Shown here: positions 50,423 through 59,016 of the stretch, in pieces
How positions within the stretch are numbered: the first letter of the stretch is position 1
Layout of the letters: each line of letters starts with the position of its first letter
Origin: Rivularia sp. PCC 7116
GTDB lineage: Bacteria; Cyanobacteriota; Cyanobacteriia; Cyanobacteriales; Nostocaceae
DNA length: 64,000 bases
Reading direction: 5' to 3'
Assembly: GCF_000316665.1 (NCBI RefSeq)
Contig: NC_019678.1
Location: forward strand, 6,977,001-7,041,000
Program-made: the position numbers and the translations under genes
Notes under the pieces: model-generated
What the model saw: the letters and a program-made list of their open reading frames with translations, nothing else
Databases searched by the model: none
Told to the model about the DNA's origin: nothing

Positions 50423-50800
50423 TGAATTGGAAGTTGGGAATTGGGCATTGGGCATTGGGCATGGGGGATTGGTAATTGGTAATTGGTAATTGGTAATTGA
50501 AAGTAAATTCTCTCCCCCTCTTCTCCCCCTACCCCCTCTCCCCTCTCTCCCCTGTTGTCACATTTTCTTGAAAATAGAAAATCAAAAAGCTTTCTGTGGA
50601 AACTAGCTATAAGTGAAAGATATAAAAGAGTGCTTCGCTACTAAACCGCAAAAATACAGATCAAAATTTCTTGGTGTGACTCAACTTTCTTTAACTTTTG
50701 ACTCCTAATTCTTAACTCCTAAATCCCAAATCCTCATCTAAAATCGAGAAATCCATGCCCTGCGCCCAATCCCCAATGCCCCATGCCCCATGCCCAATTC
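50423..50800. repeat. Heptamer and pyrimidine-rich tracts before the kinase gene
   Basis: AATTGGG / GGGCATT / GGTAATT units fill about 50430-50502, CCCCCTCTT / CCCCTCT units about 50511-50552, and TGCCCCA / ATGCCCA units about 50755-50800. The last tract overlaps the start codon of the kinase at 50790. The rest of the gap has no ORF. Confidence 0.75.
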
Positions 50801-52520
50801 CCAACCCAATTTAAATGCGATTCACTGCGTAAATCCAAATTGTTCCCGCCCTTATCCCCAACCTTGGGGAAATAAATTTTGTCTTGCTTGCGGTTCGCAG
50901 TTGCAACTTCAAGATAGATTTATTCCTCTCGAACGTTTGGGTGCTGGGGGTTTTGCTCGCATTTATACGGTTTGGGATGTCAATACACAAACAGAAAAAG
51001 TTTTGAAAGTGTTGGTGGAAACTTCTCCAAAAGCACTGGAATTATTTGCCCAAGAAGCAGAAGTTTTACAGCGTTTAAAGCATGGGGGTGTTCCTAAAGT
51101 TGAAGCTGGTGGGTATTTTTTCCATAATCTCTCAAATTCAGTTCAAGAGCTAGATTTACCTTGTCTGATAATGGAAAAAATCAACGGTCAAACTTTGGAA
51201 GAAGTTCGTTATTTATATCCGCAAGGTTGTTCTGAAGAATTGGTATTGGATTGGCTCAAGCAAGCGGTAGATATCCTGCGACATCTCCACGAACACATGA
51301 TTATTCACCGCGATATCAAACCTTCCAACTTGATGCTGCGTAATCCTGCTTCCAACTTAAAAAACTCTCAGTTGGTAGTAATTGATTTTGGTGGTGCCAA
51401 ACACTTTAGCGTTGCAAGTTCTCATCGCCAATCTAGTTCTACGCGATTATTTTCTACTGGATACAGCCCACCAGAACAAGTTACCGGGCGCAATGTTGGT
51501 CCCACAGCCGATTTTTACGCTCTTGCCAGAACAATGATTGAATTGCTAACGGGAAAAAATCCTCAAGAATTAGAAGATATCCGTACAGGAACATTACGCT
51601 GGCGGGCAGCATTAAAATTTTCAGAATATGGCAGTGATGTCAATCCTCTTTTGGTAGACTTACTCGACGACATGGCACAAGAAGAAGTGCGATCGCGTCC
51701 GGAAAATGCGCTAATTATTCAAAAACGTTTATCACAGATAATCAAATCAACATCATATTTACCAGCACATCCGCGCAAAGGGTTTTTTAAGGGAACAAAA
51801 GAATTTATCCAACAATTTATTTCAGGAACAACTCAAGGTGTAAGCAATACTACACTATTCGCTTTTAATATAATTACAGGAATAATTCGCGGTAGCTTTG
51901 AAACTTTGTGGACAATAATCTTAGCCTGTATTGGCGCTTGTATAGGTACAGTTGCAGGTTTTTTCCTCGCATTTGCCACGGCTTTAGGCGATAAAGTTGG
52001 AGAAGTAGTAAGTAATATACTGATAGCTTTCACATCAACTCCTCAACCCGTATTAGGTTCGGAGATAGTATTATTCGCAGTATCTGGGCTGACAACAGCT
52101 TGGGCAATAACTTTAGCAGGAGGTTTCAATCAAAGAAGAAGATTTTTGATAGCCTCCGTAATGGGAATAATTGGATATAGCGGGGGTTGGTTTATCTTAC
52201 AGCTAATACCACCGCAACAAGGAGAAGGCTGGGTAGGGCTAATACTATTTTCCATCTCCTTACTCACCTTCGGCTTGGGGCTTCGCTCTCATCACATTAT
52301 CCATGCAATCATGACTGCATTTGGTACGGCGATTATTTTTGCAGGGTTAATAAACTTAGGTTTATCGCCAACTATATTAAATGCAGCAACTCCCTTCGAT
52401 ATATCGCAATTGTGGATAAAATTAGCCTTCTTTTGTATGTTAGGTAGCTTTACGAGTTTTTGGTTGGGAGTCAGTACCTACCTAATCGTTCCTGCATTGA
52501 AAATTTTGGGCTGGAGATAA
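50790..52520 (+). CDS. Ser/Thr protein kinase with N-terminal zinc ribbon and C-terminal membrane domain
   Basis: A 576-aa Hanks-type kinase. Four cysteines (13, 18, 31, 34) form a short zinc ribbon. The kinase domain (about 43-310) has the Gly loop LGAGGFARIY, Lys73, the catalytic IIHRDIKPSNLM (Asp175, Asn180), Asp199-Phe-Gly and GYSPPEQ. The C-terminal part (about 345-575) contains about six membrane segments. This layout is common in filamentous cyanobacteria. The ATG lies inside a TGCCCCA/ATGCCCA repeat and no clear ribosome binding site is seen, so the exact start is less certain. The signal and targets are unknown. Confidence 0.9.
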   Translation: MPNSQPNLNAIHCVNPNCSRPYPQPWGNKFCLACGSQLQLQDRFIPLERLGAGGFARIYTVWDVNTQTEKVLKVLVETSPKALELFAQEAEVLQRLKHGGVPKVEAGGYFFHNLSNSVQELDLPCLIMEKINGQTLEEVRYLYPQGCSEELVLDWLKQAVDILRHLHEHMIIHRDIKPSNLMLRNPASNLKNSQLVVIDFGGAKHFSVASSHRQSSSTRLFSTGYSPPEQVTGRNVGPTADFYALARTMIELLTGKNPQELEDIRTGTLRWRAALKFSEYGSDVNPLLVDLLDDMAQEEVRSRPENALIIQKRLSQIIKSTSYLPAHPRKGFFKGTKEFIQQFISGTTQGVSNTTLFAFNIITGIIRGSFETLWTIILACIGACIGTVAGFFLAFATALGDKVGEVVSNILIAFTSTPQPVLGSEIVLFAVSGLTTAWAITLAGGFNQRRRFLIASVMGIIGYSGGWFILQLIPPQQGEGWVGLILFSISLLTFGLGLRSHHIIHAIMTAFGTAIIFAGLINLGLSPTILNAATPFDISQLWIKLAFFCMLGSFTSFWLGVSTYLIVPALKILGWR

Positions 52521-53700: not shown

Positions 53701-56700
53701 CTATGTCTCCACTTCAAAATCATGACAATATTGCGACATAAAATCTCTAGCTAATTCTTTTATTAAACTTAAATCCAAGTTTAAAGGAATTTTTAAGCCT
53801 AATCTTATACTAGCTGCATTTTGTATCCTATACATTTCTGCCCAAGGTCTAACAAAGATACCATGATTTTCAAGTTGAATAATTAAGCTAATAATATAGC
53901 CTTCTAAATAACCGCATTCTTTTTCTAGCTGTTGTTTGTCATTACCTATTAACTTTAAATTTAAGAATATATCCGATTCTTGCTGTAAATTAATTGGTTC
54001 AAATAATGATGACCAATCAAGATTACCGGCTGCAATCTCTTGAGTCATTTCTGTAGCTCTTGCAAATTCACCAGATAATATTTCTGCTGTCGAACGAGTG
54101 ATATTGCGAGCAGTATTTTGACAAGGTTCTATTGATGTAATTATTGGTAATAAATCCCTTGGCACTTGTACTGAATATTGCTTTCCTGCATCTGTTAAAG
54201 CAATCGGTTGTCTCCAATTGTATTGATTGAGATGATTAAAGAAATTAGCAAGTAATTTATCCGGTTGAGTATGATTTTTATCGCAATACTGGCAACTCCA
54301 AGCACTCAGTAAAGCCCAAGACAAGCCACCCAAGAAACCCCAATTGTTGCCGTAGATTCGGCGGGATTTTGCCCATGCTCTAACAGCCCGTAACAACCAT
54401 TGAAATGAATCAAATGGCACATATTCCTGCACGAATTCTCTAATAAAATCAGCTTCCCAACAACCGATAATAGCCATCTCCGATTTTGTTGGTTTAGGAT
54501 TAATGCCCGATGCCCAATTCTTATCAACACCTGTATAAAGCAAATCAAGAGATATTCCTTCTAACTTCAAACGCAACAATGGCACTTTGGCATCTAAAAC
54601 TAGTTGAATACTTTCGCAAAGTCCTTTTAAACGTTGTTGTACGTTTTTGAGAAAATCATCCCCAGATAAATAAGTAGGAATCTGACAAACAACGTCTAAG
54701 TCGCTTTCGGGACTTTCTACTCCCAAACGATAAGAACCCAATAACTGTAAATTTGGTTGAAAACCTAAACATTCTTTACAGGCTTGACTAACAATTTCTA
54801 AAACAGTATCGCGCTGTATTTGCTGTGCTTGATTTAATTTTGGTTGGAGTTGATTGACTAAATTAATCAATTCAGAAGGAATAATATCGCTTGCTTCTGC
54901 TCCTAAATCAATAATACGTCTTACTTCAAAAGCTTCATTGCCTCGACGACTAATTAAAGCTATAGATTTAACGGTGAAACTTCGAGGATGCCATTGGGGT
55001 AGTTTTGCAAAAGCTTCTTCTGGAGTAGAAAATTGTCCGACACTAAGATGGGGTGTAAATCCTGCATCCGATTTACGACTTTGTTCGTTGCATTGAGGAA
55101 ATAAACTTTGTAGTAATGCCTGTAATTGATGCAAAGCAGTTTCCGGTTGGGCGATAGGATGCAACCAAGCTGTAGAACTTTTGCGGTGAGTAAATGTCTC
55201 AAAGTTGTTTAAGTTAACTGTAAATGGCTGTATTTGAGCAACTGCTGAGGTAATTATTTCCGCAGCTTCATCAAAATAAGATTCTGGTAGAAAACCGTAA
55301 ATCAAATTAATATGTGGCATCCAACGTTCAAATCTTGCATCGTAACGCTGACGTATTGTTTGGATTGCTGGGACAATATCTTCTGGTGGAATTATTACAA
55401 TAGCGCTTTGATAGACGGGAGCAATTGTCTTTAACTCATCCCTGATAACCTCACCCCCTTCCCCTCTCCTTGTTAAGTAGAGGGGTGTCGCAAGGTTTTC
55501 TTCCCCTCTCCTTGATAAGGGCGGGGTGAGGTTTTCTTCTTCCCTTCTCCTCGATAAGGAGAGGGGTGTAGCAAGGTTTCCTTCCCTTCTCCTTGACAAG
55601 GAGAGGGGTGCCCGGAAGGGCGGGGTGAGGTTTTCTTCTTCCCTTCTCCTCGATAAGGAGAGGGGTGTAGCAAGGTTTTCTTCCCTTCTCCTTGATAAGG
55701 AGAGGGGTGCCCGGAAGGGCGGGGTGAGGTTTTCTACAACCGCTCGTATACCAAAATGGTCTGAGGGGAATATTTTTTCTTCGGTATTATCTACAGGTTC
55801 AATAGCAAATAAGTCTACAGACTGCGGTACCCAGCTATCTTGCTCGCTACACATCAAAATCCGGTCAAATCGTGCTGCTTCTCCTGCCAAACTCATTAAT
55901 TCTGCTAAAGGATTTAGCTGCGGATTGAAAGTATAACCTGCTTCATCAGGACGTAAATCCTGCCAAACATCAACAAAACTACTAATATCTGGTACTTGTT
56001 CTTGGAGATTATTTCTAGTATTAAAATCACCAACAATAAAGTAATTTCCTGGCTGCTTTCGCAGATAATCAACTACAGTTGTTAATTGGTATTTTCTTTT
56101 TTTGTCAGCATTTTGAGCGCGATTGCTTGTCAAATGCACCGCCGCAACCTGTAATAACTCACTATTGATAAACCAGCTTCCCACTAATACATGCTTATGA
56201 GCAGAAAACTTATGTTCGACTAATGTATATGGCAAACGCGACAACAATAAATTAGCAAATGTTTGAATATTTTCAGCCGTACTTGATTCAGAAACATAAT
56301 AATCCCGTACCCAATCTTGGGCTAAGAGAAACCTGACAAAATCTGGTGTTGCTTCTTGAATCGCAATAATATCCGCATCGCATTTACGCAATTCTTCAAC
56401 AATTACCGGCAAACGTTTTTCAGTTTGGATTTTCTCCTTTTCATAAACATCACATAGCACATTGAAACTAGCAACTGTTAAAGAATTTGATTTAACTGAC
56501 TTTGATAAATAATCAATAGCTTGCCAACCATCAACTTTGTATTTATAAACAGGCTTTGTACTAAAAGTTGCGGGTTGTTCTTTTATATCTGAAGTACTTT
56601 TATCGGTTTCATCTGCTTGATTGTTATTCCACGCAAAAGCCGGTAAATGTCCGCTGGAAATCAAATCCAAATGCTGCTCTCTATCCCAAACAACAATATC

Positions 56701-56904
56701 TTGAGCGCGAATATAGCGGATACGATGCCAAGGGATATCGCCATCAGCAGCCCAATGAGCCAAAGGTTTTTCGCGAATACCGCTTGCAGAAACCCTGTCT
56801 TCAAAACCAGCAATAAAAACATTGCTATCAAGACGAGAATCCCAAATAATTCGATTATAAATTTCCCAGCTAGTTGCCATTTTTGGCTTATCTTGTTTAG
56901 ACAT
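53701..56904 (-). CDS. Multidomain RNA-repair protein: MJ1316 (DUF504) - EEP phosphatase - 2H phosphoesterase - poly(A)-polymerase-like nucleotidyltransferase
   Basis: I use the ATG at 56904 (MSKQDKPKMATSWEIYNRII), giving 1067 aa; the longer frame overlaps the upstream kinase stop and begins in repeats. Domains in order: MJ1316/DUF504 (9-78, ending IPWHRIRYIRAQDIVVWDRE), predicted to recognise RNA ends; EEP nuclease/phosphatase (about 140-390: SFNVLCDVY, Glu184, GDFNTR, SDHFG); a repeat-encoded linker (about 391-488); 2H phosphoesterase (about 498-668, His531 in HINLIYGF and His619 in HLSVGQF), which opens or hydrolyses cyclic phosphates; and a Pol-beta/PAP nucleotidyltransferase (about 720-1000, GSYRLGVESPESDLDVV, Asp735, Asp737, Asp787). 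It is the last gene of an operon with a polynucleotide kinase and an RNA ligase. An end-healing and tailing enzyme is the inference. Confidence 0.85.
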   Translation of the reverse strand: MSKQDKPKMATSWEIYNRIIWDSRLDSNVFIAGFEDRVSASGIREKPLAHWAADGDIPWHRIRYIRAQDIVVWDREQHLDLISSGHLPAFAWNNNQADETDKSTSDIKEQPATFSTKPVYKYKVDGWQAIDYLSKSVKSNSLTVASFNVLCDVYEKEKIQTEKRLPVIVEELRKCDADIIAIQEATPDFVRFLLAQDWVRDYYVSESSTAENIQTFANLLLSRLPYTLVEHKFSAHKHVLVGSWFINSELLQVAAVHLTSNRAQNADKKRKYQLTTVVDYLRKQPGNYFIVGDFNTRNNLQEQVPDISSFVDVWQDLRPDEAGYTFNPQLNPLAELMSLAGEAARFDRILMCSEQDSWVPQSVDLFAIEPVDNTEEKIFPSDHFGIRAVVENLTPPFRAPLSLSRRREENLATPLSLSRRREEENLTPPFRAPLSLSRRREGNLATPLSLSRRREEENLTPPLSRRGEENLATPLYLTRRGEGGEVIRDELKTIAPVYQSAIVIIPPEDIVPAIQTIRQRYDARFERWMPHINLIYGFLPESYFDEAAEIITSAVAQIQPFTVNLNNFETFTHRKSSTAWLHPIAQPETALHQLQALLQSLFPQCNEQSRKSDAGFTPHLSVGQFSTPEEAFAKLPQWHPRSFTVKSIALISRRGNEAFEVRRIIDLGAEASDIIPSELINLVNQLQPKLNQAQQIQRDTVLEIVSQACKECLGFQPNLQLLGSYRLGVESPESDLDVVCQIPTYLSGDDFLKNVQQRLKGLCESIQLVLDAKVPLLRLKLEGISLDLLYTGVDKNWASGINPKPTKSEMAIIGCWEADFIREFVQEYVPFDSFQWLLRAVRAWAKSRRIYGNNWGFLGGLSWALLSAWSCQYCDKNHTQPDKLLANFFNHLNQYNWRQPIALTDAGKQYSVQVPRDLLPIITSIEPCQNTARNITRSTAEILSGEFARATEMTQEIAAGNLDWSSLFEPINLQQESDIFLNLKLIGNDKQQLEKECGYLEGYIISLIIQLENHGIFVRPWAEMYRIQNAASIRLGLKIPLNLDLSLIKELARDFMSQYCHDFEVET
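55448..55738. repeat. In-frame 99-bp tandem repeat inside the RNA-repair gene
   Basis: The word CGGGGTGAGGTTTTCT occurs at 55522, 55621 and 55720, an exact 99-bp period (33 codons), so the frame is kept. Each unit holds two CCTTCTCC...GGAGAGGGG palindromes. The encoded linker repeats SLSRRREENLATPL and related words, basic and Pro-rich. The unit is related to the intergenic palindrome at 40366-40414. Confidence 0.9.
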
Positions 56905-56969
56905 GATTTTAATTTGGTAATTGGTAATTGGGCATTGGGAATCATAAATTTTTCTCCTCCCTCTCTTCC
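56905..56969. repeat. CAATTAC heptamer tract between kinase and multidomain genes
   Basis: The 65-bp gap carries AATTTGGTAATTGGTAATTG and GGGCATTGGG units. They would lie in the operon message just before the start codon of the large gene. Confidence 0.65.
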
Positions 56970-58088
56970 TCAACTCGCAATCCAATCCACGCGGTGCGCT
57001 TCAATAATCGTCGGAACTTCCAAACGATTTTTCATGCGGTAGAGTACTTTTTCTGGCACTTTATCGGTACGGGTTTTGTTTCTTTTCAACAAGTTTGACC
57101 AAGATGTTTCTAGATAAACAATGCGAATATCAGCTTGGTAAGCTGCAAATAAACGAATCAACATTCCCCGTAATTGCTTGTTTAAATTAGTTGCATTCCA
57201 AACAAAAGAAACTCCTGTTCGCATATATTCTTTCGCCAGATATTTAGCTGCATTTGCAACTTCACCTTGATTATCACCTGGTTTAATACCCATTTCGCGA
57301 CGCAAGTCATCCAGGGATATGACTTTATATTCTGGTAAATTTTCTTGAATCCAAGTGTCTTTTCCCGAGCCGGGTAATCCTGACATGATTACTACTTGAA
57401 AACGAGTATCGTCATAAGCGTGATAATCAGGATTACCGTTTTCTTTTTGGAAATATATAAACCGACTATGGGCTGATGGAAACAAGCGTGGTTGGGAAAA
57501 ACAATTGTTTTCTCGGCAGAATTCACGAAAGAAATCAATACGTTCAAATAATTGATTTTGGTCATTACAATAACGTCCCCTTACATCAGCTTCTGCGAGC
57601 ATAGCTAACATATCGCAACGAATAATTTGGCTGGCTTTAATAACAGCTTTTTGCGGATTTAATTTATCCCAAAACCATAAAGGTAAACTTCCGTATTTTA
57701 CTAAAGAGACAATTTCTTCTCTTTGTTGAAAAGGTACGTTTAAATCCCAAAGAATTTCTTGTGCCATTTTTGCACCTTGTAATACATGCCCCTTTGAACT
57801 AATGGCACCAGAATCTTCTATTTTGGTAGCCTTTGGTTTTGCGACATCGTGTAATAAAGCCCCAGCAAACAGCATCGAGCGCTGTATTTCAGGTAAAGCT
57901 TGCCATTGGGGTAATGCAATCAAAGCTTCACACACTAACTTTGTATGAGTAAGAACATCACCCTCCTCGTGATAGCGTGCATCTTGCGGGCAATCAGCAA
58001 GTACTCGCAACCACTCAAATTTATTTTCTAATTCACGCCAATTTATGGCAAAATCACCCTTATTTGGGCAATAAGGAAAAGTCCACAT
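56970..58088 (-). CDS. HD-domain phosphohydrolase fused to polynucleotide kinase (Pnkp-like)
   Basis: The 372-aa protein has two domains. The N-terminal HD domain (about 25-200) has His48, the His80-Asp81 pair in LLHDVAKP, His101 and Asp168 in EADVRGR, resembling the HD part of CCA-adding enzymes that removes 2',3'-cyclic or 2'-phosphates. The C-terminal P-loop kinase (about 230-372) has Walker A GLPGSGKDT (237-245), SLDDLRREMG, WNATN and a lid region KRNKTRTDKVP, the pattern of T4-type 5'-OH polynucleotide kinases. Both activities would prepare broken RNA ends for ligation. It is the middle gene of the operon, 79 bp after the ligase and 65 bp before the multidomain gene. Confidence 0.88.
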   Translation of the reverse strand: MWTFPYCPNKGDFAINWRELENKFEWLRVLADCPQDARYHEEGDVLTHTKLVCEALIALPQWQALPEIQRSMLFAGALLHDVAKPKATKIEDSGAISSKGHVLQGAKMAQEILWDLNVPFQQREEIVSLVKYGSLPLWFWDKLNPQKAVIKASQIIRCDMLAMLAEADVRGRYCNDQNQLFERIDFFREFCRENNCFSQPRLFPSAHSRFIYFQKENGNPDYHAYDDTRFQVVIMSGLPGSGKDTWIQENLPEYKVISLDDLRREMGIKPGDNQGEVANAAKYLAKEYMRTGVSFVWNATNLNKQLRGMLIRLFAAYQADIRIVYLETSWSNLLKRNKTRTDKVPEKVLYRMKNRLEVPTIIEAHRVDWIAS

Positions 58089-58167
58089 AGTATTAGTTAG
58101 TAGTTAGTGGTTAGTGGTTGGTGGTTAGTAGCGAATAAAGAATGATGATGGAGTAATGGAGAGAAAA
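58089..58167. repeat. TTAGTGG/TTAGTAG tandem units between ligase and kinase genes
   Basis: TTAGTTAGTAGTTAGTGG and similar 7-mer units occupy about 58090-58130 in the 79-bp gap. They lie within the expected operon transcript. Confidence 0.6.
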
Positions 58168-59016
58168 TTATTTTCTTACCCCCTCTACCCCCTCTCCCTC
58201 TCTTCCCCCTCTACTACTCCCTGATAACTGCTCGCTAAATAAATCAACACCATCACACAACTGATTCGGAATTATCGGACGATTCAGCCAATGTCCATCT
58301 GATTGTTGAATGGTGGTTAAAAAGCTCGAACGCACGTATTTATAACGATTTATAACCGTATCTGCCGATTCAATTTTGATGTATAAACCTTCAATTACAG
58401 AGCTTCTATCGGTTTGTTGTAAAGAGCGTTCGACATCTAGCCCTTTTTCTAAACAAATCTTTTCAAAGTTCTGTAAGTGTTCGGAGGTTTGATAATATGA
58501 TTTTCCTAAGAAACTAATTAATTGTTTATAGGATTGAATTTCTCCAGCAAATAAGAGGGGTACGGAAACTATCGGCAAACCTGCTAATAGCTGTTTTCTT
58601 TTAGCAGTACTTAGAAATACTTGTTTTTCTAAATCAAGCACATCGAATTCTAAGAAATAATGAGGCAAAGCATCGTAAAATACCGTATGTTTTGCATATA
58701 GCCATTCTCCGTAAAGAATATAGCGACTACCTAATACTTCCCAAAAACTAGCAACGTGAGTATTAGCCCACTGCTTGAACAAGTTGAAGTGCTTTTCTCG
58801 CGCTCCACCAGTTAAATAGTGTCCCCGACTTTGCAGTTGAATTTGTCCGTCAGCACTGAAGCTAATTGCAGCATTCGCACCATCTACTTTTTCTTCAACT
58901 ACTGCATAGCGCTGCTTAATTTCTGCAAAAGGGATATCATTTAAATCTTCATCCCCAGGTTGCAATCGCGAACCCTGAATATGATGGGTACGCGGATATT
59001 TATAAATTTGTTTCAT
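58168..59016 (-). CDS. ATP-dependent RNA ligase
   Basis: The nucleotidyltransferase motif I is EEKVDGANAAIS, with Lys43 as the AMP-accepting residue. Others follow in order: SRGHYL (Ia), LYGEWLYAKHTVFYDALPHY with FLEFDV (III region), EGLYIKIE (IV) and RYKYVRSSF (V). At 282 aa it is close to the Rnl2-like/bacterial RNA ligases. It should seal 3'-OH and 5'-phosphate RNA ends produced by its operon partners. It is the first gene of the operon. The C-terminal tail GGREGEGVEGVRK is encoded by a CCCCCTCTA repeat tract, so the stop has probably been moved by repeat insertion. The ATG begins MKQIYKYPRTHHIQGSR. Confidence 0.88.
   Translation of the reverse strand: MKQIYKYPRTHHIQGSRLQPGDEDLNDIPFAEIKQRYAVVEEKVDGANAAISFSADGQIQLQSRGHYLTGGAREKHFNLFKQWANTHVASFWEVLGSRYILYGEWLYAKHTVFYDALPHYFLEFDVLDLEKQVFLSTAKRKQLLAGLPIVSVPLLFAGEIQSYKQLISFLGKSYYQTSEHLQNFEKICLEKGLDVERSLQQTDRSSVIEGLYIKIESADTVINRYKYVRSSFLTTIQQSDGHWLNRPIIPNQLCDGVDLFSEQLSGSSRGGREGEGVEGVRK
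58171..58216. repeat. TACCCCCTC pyrimidine tract overlapping the ligase 3' end
   Basis: Tandem TACCCCCTC and CCCTCTC units encode the last residues of the RNA ligase. The same tract type lies at about 27475, 45025 (inverted) and 50515. Confidence 0.65.

What the first reader, a model, noticed from the sequence alone, without database searches (positions are those of the whole stretch)
53701..59016. Three-gene RNA-repair operon with a four-domain end-healing protein
Seen: an RNA ligase (Lys43 in EEKVDGAN), an HD plus P-loop polynucleotide kinase (GLPGSGKDT) and a protein joining MJ1316/DUF504, EEP, 2H phosphoesterase (HINL and HLSV) and a Pol-beta/PAP-like nucleotidyltransferase (SDLDVV), all on one strand with gaps of 79 and 65 bp. 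Known: each domain handles RNA ends or nucleotides in other systems. Inference: together they recognise cleaved RNA, remove cyclic or terminal phosphates, phosphorylate 5'-OH ends, replace lost nucleotides and ligate. This would suit tRNA or rRNA cut by toxins or during stress. A single chain that can both erase and rewrite an RNA 3' end, paired with its own kinase and ligase, is unusual.
Basis: partly seen in the sequence, partly recalled or inferred. Interest (0 to 1): 0.85.

Follow-up and report, generated by a model that had tools for sequence, protein, structure and literature searches.

The report
RNA-repair operon with eukaryotic-type poly(A) polymerase
A cyanobacterium carries three neighbouring genes that look like a kit for mending cut RNA, one of them a single protein that joins end-recognition, end-cleaning and RNA-tailing modules, the tailing module closely resembling the poly(A) polymerase of our own cell nuclei; the kit recurs in distant bacteria, but nobody has tested here what it mends.

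Summary
Three minus-strand genes encode an ATP-dependent RNA ligase, an HD-phosphoesterase/polynucleotide kinase (HD-Pnk) and one chain of MJ1316, EEP, 2H and nucleotidyltransferase domains. Every domain exceeds its Pfam cut-off, and catalytic residues are near-invariant in 60 aligned sequences. The partnership is real. In 386 sampled cyanobacterial genomes ligase and HD-Pnk occur in the same 10, and the MJ1316 gene in 4, all among those 10. In 147 genomes of the Streptomyces order a ligase-kinase fusion occurs in 34; all 34 have an MJ1316 gene, adjacent in 33. RNA end-healing and sealing is therefore the best reading. Refinements: the nucleotidyltransferase belongs with eukaryotic nuclear poly(A) polymerases (E 3e-74; next kind 2e-14); the EEP domain is closest to TDP2, not to a 3' deadenylase; HD-Pnk plus ligase should suffice to heal and seal, so the four-domain protein is an add-on in cyanobacteria. 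In Actinobacteria the fused partner has no recognisable HD domain, so the four-domain protein probably does the 3' healing there. Rebuilding lost nucleotides stays untested. The architecture is probably sketched in Burroughs & Aravind 2016, which I could not read. Verdict: new variant of a known kind.

The parts
58168..59016 (-). ATP-dependent RNA ligase, 282 aa (RNA_ligase PF09414); nucleotidyl-acceptor Lys43 codon at 58888-58890
   Evidence: Pfam 6e-35; Lys43, Asp45, Gly46 in 12 of 12 ligases chosen for the alignment, 4 of them actinobacterial fusions
56970..58088 (-). HD-Pnk, 372 aa: N-terminal HD phosphoesterase plus C-terminal P-loop polynucleotide kinase
   Evidence: Pfam AAA_33 2e-24, HD 1e-4; HDIG 2e-8, bacter_Pnkp 2e-8 below its cut-off; H48, H80, D81, H101 in 34 of 35 and K243, D260, R263 in 35 of 35 aligned sequences, window included
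57444..58088 (-). HD domain part of HD-Pnk (residues about 1-215)
56970..57407 (-). kinase part of HD-Pnk (residues about 228-372)
53701..56904 (-). four-domain protein, 1067 aa, MJ1316-EEP-2H-PAP
56629..56883 (-). MJ1316 domain (PF04457)
   Evidence: 65.1 bits against a cut-off of 26.3; W21, D22, G55, P58, H60, R61, W73, R75, D80 in 60 of 60
55705..56493 (-). EEP domain (PF03372), TDP2-like
   Evidence: profile best hit TDP2 4e-23; Foldseek TDP2 2e-14; N148, E184, H257, D293, N295, D347, D382, H383 in 60 of 60
55456..55713 (-). disordered 86-residue linker encoded by a dispersed genomic repeat
   Evidence: pLDDT under 50 for 398-483; absent from the 6 sequences of other genera in A1; repeat copies
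54889..55431 (-). 2H phosphoesterase domain (PF13563); HINL and HLSV motifs
   Evidence: 1e-35; H531 and H619 in 60 of 60; third residue of motif I is N in 42, T in 18 of 60
53704..54837 (-). eukaryotic-type poly(A) polymerase: palm NTase, central domain, C-terminal RRM-like domain
   Evidence: PAP_central 5e-30; poly(A) polymerase gamma 3e-74; D735 and D737 in 60 of 60, D787 in 59 of 60; secondary-structure order of 979-1066

Best explanation
This is an RNA end-healing and sealing system with an added 3'-end processor. Ribonuclease cuts that leave 2',3'-cyclic phosphate and 5'-OH ends are healed by HD-Pnk (HD removes the 2',3'-cyclic, 3' or 2' phosphate; the kinase phosphorylates the 5'-OH), and the ligase seals 3'-OH to 5'-phosphate. 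The four-domain protein docks on damaged 3' ends through MJ1316, opens or removes the cyclic phosphate with its 2H domain (helped by the EEP phosphodiesterase), and its poly(A)-polymerase-type NTase adds nucleotides, in cyanobacteria probably A, to 3'-OH ends that have been nibbled back, so that ligation restores length. In Actinobacteria, where the partner is a ligase-kinase fusion without a recognisable HD domain, the four-domain protein is the likely 3'-healing subunit. Shown here: domains, conserved catalytic residues, order, co-occurrence. Inferred: every reaction, the substrate, the order of steps, and repair as the purpose.
For: All domains confirmed; catalytic residues near-invariant in 60 sequences. 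Ligase and HD-Pnk (E up to 1e-50) in the same 10 of 386 cyanobacterial genomes, the MJ1316 gene in 4, all inside the 10 (hypergeometric 2e-7). Of 25 cyanobacterial genomes with the four-domain protein or a piece of it, 24 have HD-Pnk and 23 the ligase. In 147 genomes of the Streptomyces order the ligase-kinase fusion is in 34, all 34 with an MJ1316 gene, adjacent (up to about 210 nt) in 33. The actinobacterial middle domain does not match HD (hhalign probability 0.7%) while the kinase does match (99.3%). MJ1316 is described as recognising RNA 2',3'-cyclic ends (PMC6514570, passages); 2H phosphoesterases and polynucleotide kinases working with ATP-grasp RNA ligases are described for phages (PMC7824862, passages).
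Against: No activity is shown. The Myxococcaceae/Archangiaceae genomes searched have the four-domain protein without HD-Pnk (0 of 6) and without a close ligase homologue, so it can act outside this trio, although each has 1 to 5 PF09414 matches. In 15 of 25 cyanobacterial genomes no HD-Pnk was seen beside it in the stretch held (some contigs end there). 2H is missing from the protein in the three intact short variants examined. Of the ATP-contact residues of yeast Pap1 that I checked (roles recalled), Asn226 is kept in cyanobacteria but is Ala in 22 of 22 Actinobacteria, and Asn189 and Val234 are kept in 0 of 18 cyanobacteria, so adenylate specificity is not secure anywhere and least so in Actinobacteria. 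The 'no HD' result rests on shallow alignments (Neff about 2.5), and another frame of the S. scabiei genome has an HD-like match (6e-7). MJ1316 has no solved relative by profile. No tRNA or Rfam gene in the window points to a substrate. Co-occurrence values ignore shared ancestry.
Confidence: 0.6

Rival explanations
1. Triage: the four-domain protein tags RNAs that cannot be repaired. It clears the blocked 3' end and adds a poly(A) tail that marks the fragment for PNPase/RNase decay, while the ligase/HD-Pnk pair separately repairs what can be saved.
For: The NTase is a full poly(A) polymerase type; polyadenylation promotes decay in bacteria (general knowledge); the protein is dispensable to the pair in 6 of 10 cyanobacterial genomes and occurs without HD-Pnk in 6 of 6 Myxococcaceae/Archangiaceae genomes.
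Against: Immediate coupling to the ligase-kinase gene in 33 of 34 genomes of the Streptomyces order suggests it feeds ligation. A cyclic-end reader on a degradation tagger is not required.
Confidence: 0.17
2. RNA maturation rather than damage repair: the set splices, circularises or matures particular tRNAs or small RNAs made with cyclic-phosphate ends.
For: In domain content the actinobacterial ligase-kinase plus 2H partner resembles fungal tRNA ligase Trl1 (ligase, kinase, 2H; recalled); fungal Trl1-LIG-KIN is a weak whole-length Foldseek hit (5e-5, rmsd 19.8).
Against: Patchy distribution (4 of 386 cyanobacteria; 34 of 147 in the Streptomyces order), plasmid copies and an apparent loss by transposon insertion (L018) do not fit an essential maturation step. 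No tRNA or Rfam gene in the window.
Confidence: 0.1
3. Nucleotide signalling: the NTase makes 2'-5' or other oligonucleotides, and the 2H and EEP domains degrade them.
For: The NTase region has a weak match to a CBASS cyclase model (5.6e-5, far below its cut-off) and to CdnC (1.5e-5); 2H and EEP families include 2'-5' phosphodiesterases (general knowledge).
Against: It scores far better against poly(A) polymerases (3e-74) than against any cyclase and has a PAP-like C-terminal RRM-like domain; the partners are ligase and kinase, and the three proteins hold no other effector domain.
Confidence: 0.05
4. DNA break repair: ligase, kinase and TDP2-like EEP heal and seal DNA ends.
For: EEP is closest to TDP2; HD-Pnk of Runella also acts on DNA 3' phosphate (recalled).
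Against: MJ1316, 2H and a poly(A)-polymerase-type NTase are RNA-end modules; the ligase belongs to the RNA ligase family PF09414, though Naegleria-type members seal nicks in duplexes (recalled).
Confidence: 0.06

Closest known systems
Bacterial RNA-repair systems surveyed by Burroughs & Aravind 2016 (NAR gkw722; not held, recalled; cited in PMC6514570)
   Same: Ligase, terminus-modifying kinase and phosphoesterase, and a nucleotidyltransferase together; patchy, laterally spread; MJ1316 as cyclic-end reader
   Different: I could not check whether that survey lists this exact trio, the poly(A)-polymerase identity, the actinobacterial fusion or the co-occurrence counts
HD-Pnk with ATP-dependent ligase (Runella HD-Pnk, Munir & Shuman 2017; RM378 PNKP; both recalled)
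   Same: HD plus P-loop kinase domain order and adjacency to a ligase; such pairs are also seen on a Variovorax and a Pseudomonas plasmid
   Different: Those two plasmid loci show no four-domain protein in the stretch read
Fungal tRNA ligase Trl1 (ligase-kinase-2H CPDase; recalled)
   Same: The actinobacterial ligase-kinase fusion plus a 2H domain in the partner gives the same three activities
   Different: 2H is on another chain with MJ1316, EEP and PAP; only a weak, loosely fitting Foldseek match
Eukaryotic nuclear poly(A) polymerases (PAPOLA, PAPOLG, Pap1, Pla1)
   Same: Palm, central and RRM-like domains; catalytic Asp triad; Asn226 of Pap1 kept in 18 of 18 cyanobacteria
   Different: 16-34% identity to the three eukaryotic sequences, 25-33% for cyanobacterial rows; fused to three other domains; Asn226 replaced by Ala in 22 of 22 Actinobacteria, Asn189 and Val234 not kept in cyanobacteria
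Pnkp-Rnl-Hen1 bacterial RNA repair complex (PMC4411300, search listing only)
   Same: Kinase, phosphatase and ligase on ribotoxin-cut RNA
   Different: Here HD and 2H domains; no methyltransferase in the three proteins
Hyperionvirus protein A0A3G5AFW8 (giant virus, predicted structure)
   Same: Aligned over 1086 columns to the four-domain model, Foldseek E 3e-52
   Different: 845 aa; rmsd 29 over the whole, so domain by domain only; its domain content was not examined

Membership tests
MJ1316 domain (PF04457) | Pfam score over curated cut-off | tested here: met
   65.1 against 26.3 bits
MJ1316 domain (PF04457) | binds RNA 2',3'-cyclic phosphate ends | not testable with these tools
   literature statement only (PMC6514570 passage)
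EEP phosphodiesterases (PF03372) | catalytic N, E, H, GDxN and SDH motifs | tested here: met
   60 of 60 aligned sequences
TDP2-type EEP | closest relatives by profile and fold are TDP2 | tested here: met
   4e-23; next kinds beta-hemolysin 7e-12, CCR4-type 8e-7, PDE12 5e-5, ANGEL2 7e-4; Foldseek. Activity untested
2H phosphoesterases | two HxS/T motifs | tested here: inconclusive
   Both His in 60 of 60; motif II third residue S or T in 59 of 60; motif I third residue N in 42 of 60 and T in 18
Canonical (eukaryotic-type) poly(A) polymerase | palm plus PAP_central, with an RRM-like C-terminus | tested here: met
Canonical (eukaryotic-type) poly(A) polymerase | three catalytic carboxylates | tested here: met
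   D735, D737 60 of 60; D787 59 of 60
Canonical (eukaryotic-type) poly(A) polymerase | ATP-contact residues of Pap1 (roles recalled) | tested here: inconclusive
   Asn226: N in 18 of 18 cyanobacteria, 2 of 2 Acidobacteriota, 1 of 1 Bacteroidota; A in 22 of 22 Actinomycetota; H in 10 of 16 Myxococcota. Tyr224: Y in 13 of 18 cyanobacteria. Asn189 and Val234: 0 of 18 cyanobacteria
HD-Pnk | N-terminal HD with metal ligands, C-terminal P-loop kinase | tested here: met
HD-Pnk | 2',3' phosphoesterase and 5'-OH kinase activities | not testable with these tools
   sequence only
HD-Pnk (actinobacterial fusion partner) | HD domain | tested here: not met
   hhalign 0.7% for the middle domain of 27 aligned fusions, shallow alignments; no Pfam HD hit at E up to 1 in 2 of 2 fusions scanned
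ATP-dependent RNA ligase (PF09414) | KxDG nucleotidyl motif and profile score | tested here: met
Pnkp-Rnl-Hen1 system | Hen1 methyltransferase | tested here: not met
   no methyltransferase domain in the three proteins; the rest of the genome was not searched

The most novel reading that the evidence does not exclude
The nucleotidyltransferase of this bacterial RNA-repair protein and the nuclear poly(A) polymerase of eukaryotes are one family, and the eukaryotic mRNA polyadenylation enzyme may descend from a bacterial RNA-end-repair protein of this kind (or a shared ancestor). In bacteria its job would be to rebuild damaged RNA 3' ends with adenosines before ligation.
Probability: 0.2. Interest if true: 0.85.

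Novelty: new variant of a known kind. Interest (0 to 1): 0.55.

Why it matters
If right, bacteria have an RNA-repair route in which a eukaryotic-type poly(A) polymerase rewrites an end before ligation, so repair need not be limited to intact cut ends. It gives a concrete bacterial relative for the question of where the nuclear poly(A) polymerase came from, a natural comparison (HD present or absent, 2H present, split off or absent) that isolates the role of each healing domain, and a ready enzyme set for RNA biochemistry.

Tried and rejected
Considered and set aside: a phage-borne system (no match to the four-domain protein in 50,697 phage records, nor a confirmed one in viral contigs; HD-Pnk and ligase do have phage relatives, 42 and 148 records, mostly partial). 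A defence-island setting: the window neighbours look unrelated by eye, and of the recurring neighbours in 24 cyanobacterial loci HD-Pnk (8) and ligase (7) hold a fixed side and strand, while a Ser/Thr-kinase-like family (7) and an ABC-ATPase family (5) recur at varied places. A guide or substrate RNA encoded nearby (no tRNA; no Rfam match). An OAS/CBASS-like cyclase. EEP as ANGEL2 or PDE12 type (much weaker than TDP2). Promoter- and terminator-like sites were not above shuffles, so the operon claim rests on spacing, strand and conservation. The tree of the NTase places three eukaryotic PAPs beside the cyanobacterial/acidobacterial clade with SH-aLRT 87, unrooted, quick method, several long branches: suggestive only. 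Searches for a printed description; nothing in the listings I saw shows this trio, but the library lacks most subscription papers and the key survey. My first reading that the actinobacterial fusion contains an HD domain was dropped. The VIA structure library could not be used.

Dropped rows: of 80 loci, 75 passed for full-length use; 4 were skipped by length and 1 (L042) fell under the score limit. A6 used 59 of the 75 plus the window; the domain alignments A2-A5 used 24 chosen loci plus the window.
Full report
What is there. The window holds three minus-strand genes in the order ligase (58168-59016), HD-Pnk (56970-58088), four-domain protein (56904-53701), with gaps of 79 and 65 bp. Pfam assigns RNA_ligase; HD plus AAA_33; and MJ1316, Exo_endo_phos, 2_5_RNA_ligase2, PAP_NTPase and PAP_central in the third, all over cut-off. 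NCBIfam adds HDIG over its cut-off and, below their cut-offs, PSTK- and Pnkp-type kinase matches. AlphaFold models the third protein with mean pLDDT 86 and one long disordered linker, residues 398-483. pTM is 0.51, so the arrangement of the domains is not known.

Active sites. In 60 aligned sequences (window included) from six phyla, the EEP residues N148, E184, H257, D293, N295, D382 and H383, both 2H histidines, NTase D735 and D737 and the MJ1316 residues W21, D22, P58, H60, R61, W73 and R75 are in 60 of 60; D787 is in 59 (phyla as). The 2H motif I is unusual: its third residue is Asn in 42 and Thr in 18 of 60. In 35 aligned HD-Pnk sequences H48, H80, D81 and H101 are in 34 and the kinase K243, D260 and R263 in 35.

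Which relatives. The NTase profile finds eukaryotic nuclear poly(A) polymerases first (PAPOLG 3e-74, PAP alpha 5e-69, Pap1 4e-65, Pla1 2e-63) and then drops to a uridylyltransferase at 2e-14 and a CD-NTase at 1.5e-5; Foldseek agrees. Secondary structure shows an RRM-like C-terminus, as in those enzymes. PAP_central was found in only 3 of 386 cyanobacterial genomes, each time in this protein; the fourth MJ1316 carrier, G377, has its copy broken. The EEP profile finds TDP2 first (4e-23), above beta-hemolysin (7e-12) and well above CCR4-type, PDE12 and ANGEL2 enzymes. The 2H profile finds BSU11850 of B. subtilis (1e-9; I take it to be YjcG, recalled). MJ1316 finds nothing in the PDB. The ligase finds nothing as a single sequence and only an entry named DNA ligase and Naegleria ligases, weakly, as a profile (E 0.02 and 0.6).

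Distribution. A genome scan found 341 encoded relatives, of which the best 80 were kept, in Cyanobacteria, Actinobacteria, Myxococcota, Acidobacteria, Bacteroidota and a Proteobacteria bin. Plasmid records hold 7 relatives, including a conjugative Calothrix plasmid. Phage records and viral contigs gave none, but a giant-virus protein matches along the whole model in fold (Hyperionvirus A0A3G5AFW8, 3e-52). HD-Pnk and ligase have phage relatives, mostly partial.

Partnership in cyanobacteria. In the same draw of 386 genomes the MJ1316 domain is in 4, HD-Pnk at E up to 1e-50 in 10 and the ligase in the same 10; all 4 lie among the 10. If genomes were independent, chance would give this with probability 2e-7, but shared ancestry inflates that. 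I also searched 39 genomes carrying the protein or a piece of it (of 41 handles given; one record was too large and two handles fell in one genome). Of the 25 cyanobacterial ones, 24 have HD-Pnk and 23 the ligase; the exceptions are G433, a 3.5 Mb assembly with neither, and G438, without ligase; in G435 HD-Pnk and in G432 the ligase match in two pieces. HD-Pnk is beside the four-domain gene in 10 of these 25, in 9 with the ligase; in the other 15 it was not seen in the stretch held, and in some of these, such as G145, G377 and G425, it lies megabases away. So the pair is the core and the four-domain protein an add-on.

Partnership elsewhere. In 27 of 28 actinobacterial loci a kinase homologue lies directly upstream, in one chain with the ligase in 24; in the other 3 the stretch held begins inside that gene. 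In 147 genomes of the order of S. scabiei (Streptomycetales, name assumed) the fusion occurs in 34 and MJ1316 in 42 (41 over cut-off); all 34 fall inside the 42 and, by the listed coordinates, 33 of 34 are adjacent within about 210 nt, G468 being the exception. The other 8 MJ1316 genomes have short frames (273-426 aa; one sub-threshold match in a 602-aa frame); the one examined, G553, is MJ1316-2H. The fusion's middle region does not match HD (probability 0.7%) while its kinase matches HD-Pnk's (99.3%), and over cut-off Pfam finds ligase and AAA_33 only. A fold search of the fusion gave kinases and ligases, with no HD protein among the 50 listed of 636 matches. Hence the inference that the four-domain protein supplies 3' healing there; a strongly diverged HD fold, or an HD enzyme elsewhere in the genome, is not excluded. 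Three variants in that order (G503, G581, G583) lack the 2H domain; G503 and G583 have a second MJ1316 frame elsewhere, G581 does not. Six of six Myxococcaceae/Archangiaceae genomes have the protein without HD-Pnk, but each has at least one PF09414 match over cut-off.

Mechanism. HD-Pnk plus ligase can turn 2',3'-cyclic phosphate/5'-OH breaks into sealed RNA by established chemistry of those families (recalled: Munir & Shuman 2017, not read). The add-on would read the damaged 3' end (MJ1316, as stated in passages of PMC6514570), resolve cyclic phosphate (2H, proposed for ATP-grasp ligase systems of phages in passages of PMC7824862), and add nucleotides (PAP). Asn226, which contacts adenine in yeast Pap1 (role recalled), is kept in 18 of 18 cyanobacterial, 2 of 2 acidobacterial, 1 of 1 Bacteroidota and 3 of 3 eukaryotic sequences but is Ala in 22 of 22 actinobacterial ones; Asn189 and Val234 of Pap1 are not kept in cyanobacteria. 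Adenylate preference is therefore a tentative prediction for the former only. The EEP substrate is the least certain step.

Novelty. The syntax of ligase, terminus-modifying enzymes and NTase is known (Burroughs & Aravind 2016 recalled, not held; kinase, 2H and ligase in passages of PMC7824862), and HD-Pnk/ligase pairs are known (recalled) and seen here on other plasmids. What I did not find described in the listings of the searches named under Tried and rejected is the poly(A)-polymerase identity, the TDP2-like EEP, the HD-less actinobacterial ligase-kinase fusion tied to the same protein, and the co-occurrence numbers. I therefore call it a new variant of a known kind, with the caveat that the 2016 survey may already show the architecture.

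Noticed in passing
window 55456-55713: The linker between EEP and 2H is made of in-frame copies of a dispersed repeat (core TCTCCTTGATAAGGAGAGGGG, 12 exact copies in the whole genome, reversed control 0). It is present in the sister Rivularia genome and absent from the 6 sequences of other genera in A1.
   Followed up: partly
window 58168-58224: The ligase has a low-complexity C-terminal tail (GSSRGGREGEGVEGVRK) that its 262-aa sister in L015 lacks; it looks like read-out of C/T-rich intergenic repeat sequence.
   Followed up: no
L018 5000-9796: In genome G377 the four-domain gene is split by inserted frames that look like a TnpB-type transposon (recognised by eye), while the ligase/HD-Pnk pair lies elsewhere in the genome.
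   Followed up: partly
L038 6965-10012 and L021/L007: Calothrix brevissima NIES-22 has a chromosomal copy whose frame is broken late in the NTase and an unbroken copy on a conjugative plasmid.
   Followed up: no
L044 3677-10273: Pyxidicoccus fallax has two tandem copies of the four-domain protein.
   Followed up: no
L011 4280-5158, L012, L013, L179: Streptomyces-order genomes carry stand-alone MJ1316-2H proteins, some on plasmids (L011-L013), suggesting that MJ1316 is a portable aiming module.
   Followed up: partly
24 cyanobacterial loci; window 50790-52520: Ser/Thr-kinase-like frames recur within about 5.5 kb in 7 of 24 cyanobacterial loci, on both strands and at varied distances; the window also has one downstream of the operon.
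   Followed up: no
BFVD entries A0A649VPI5 and A0A7T1KS78: Gordonia phage proteins annotated as RNA ligase match part of the four-domain model in fold, hinting at phage ligase fusions with a related healing domain.
   Followed up: no
L175: Genome G505 has a decayed copy of the operon: a ligase-kinase fusion with a large internal gap and a broken four-domain frame.
   Followed up: no
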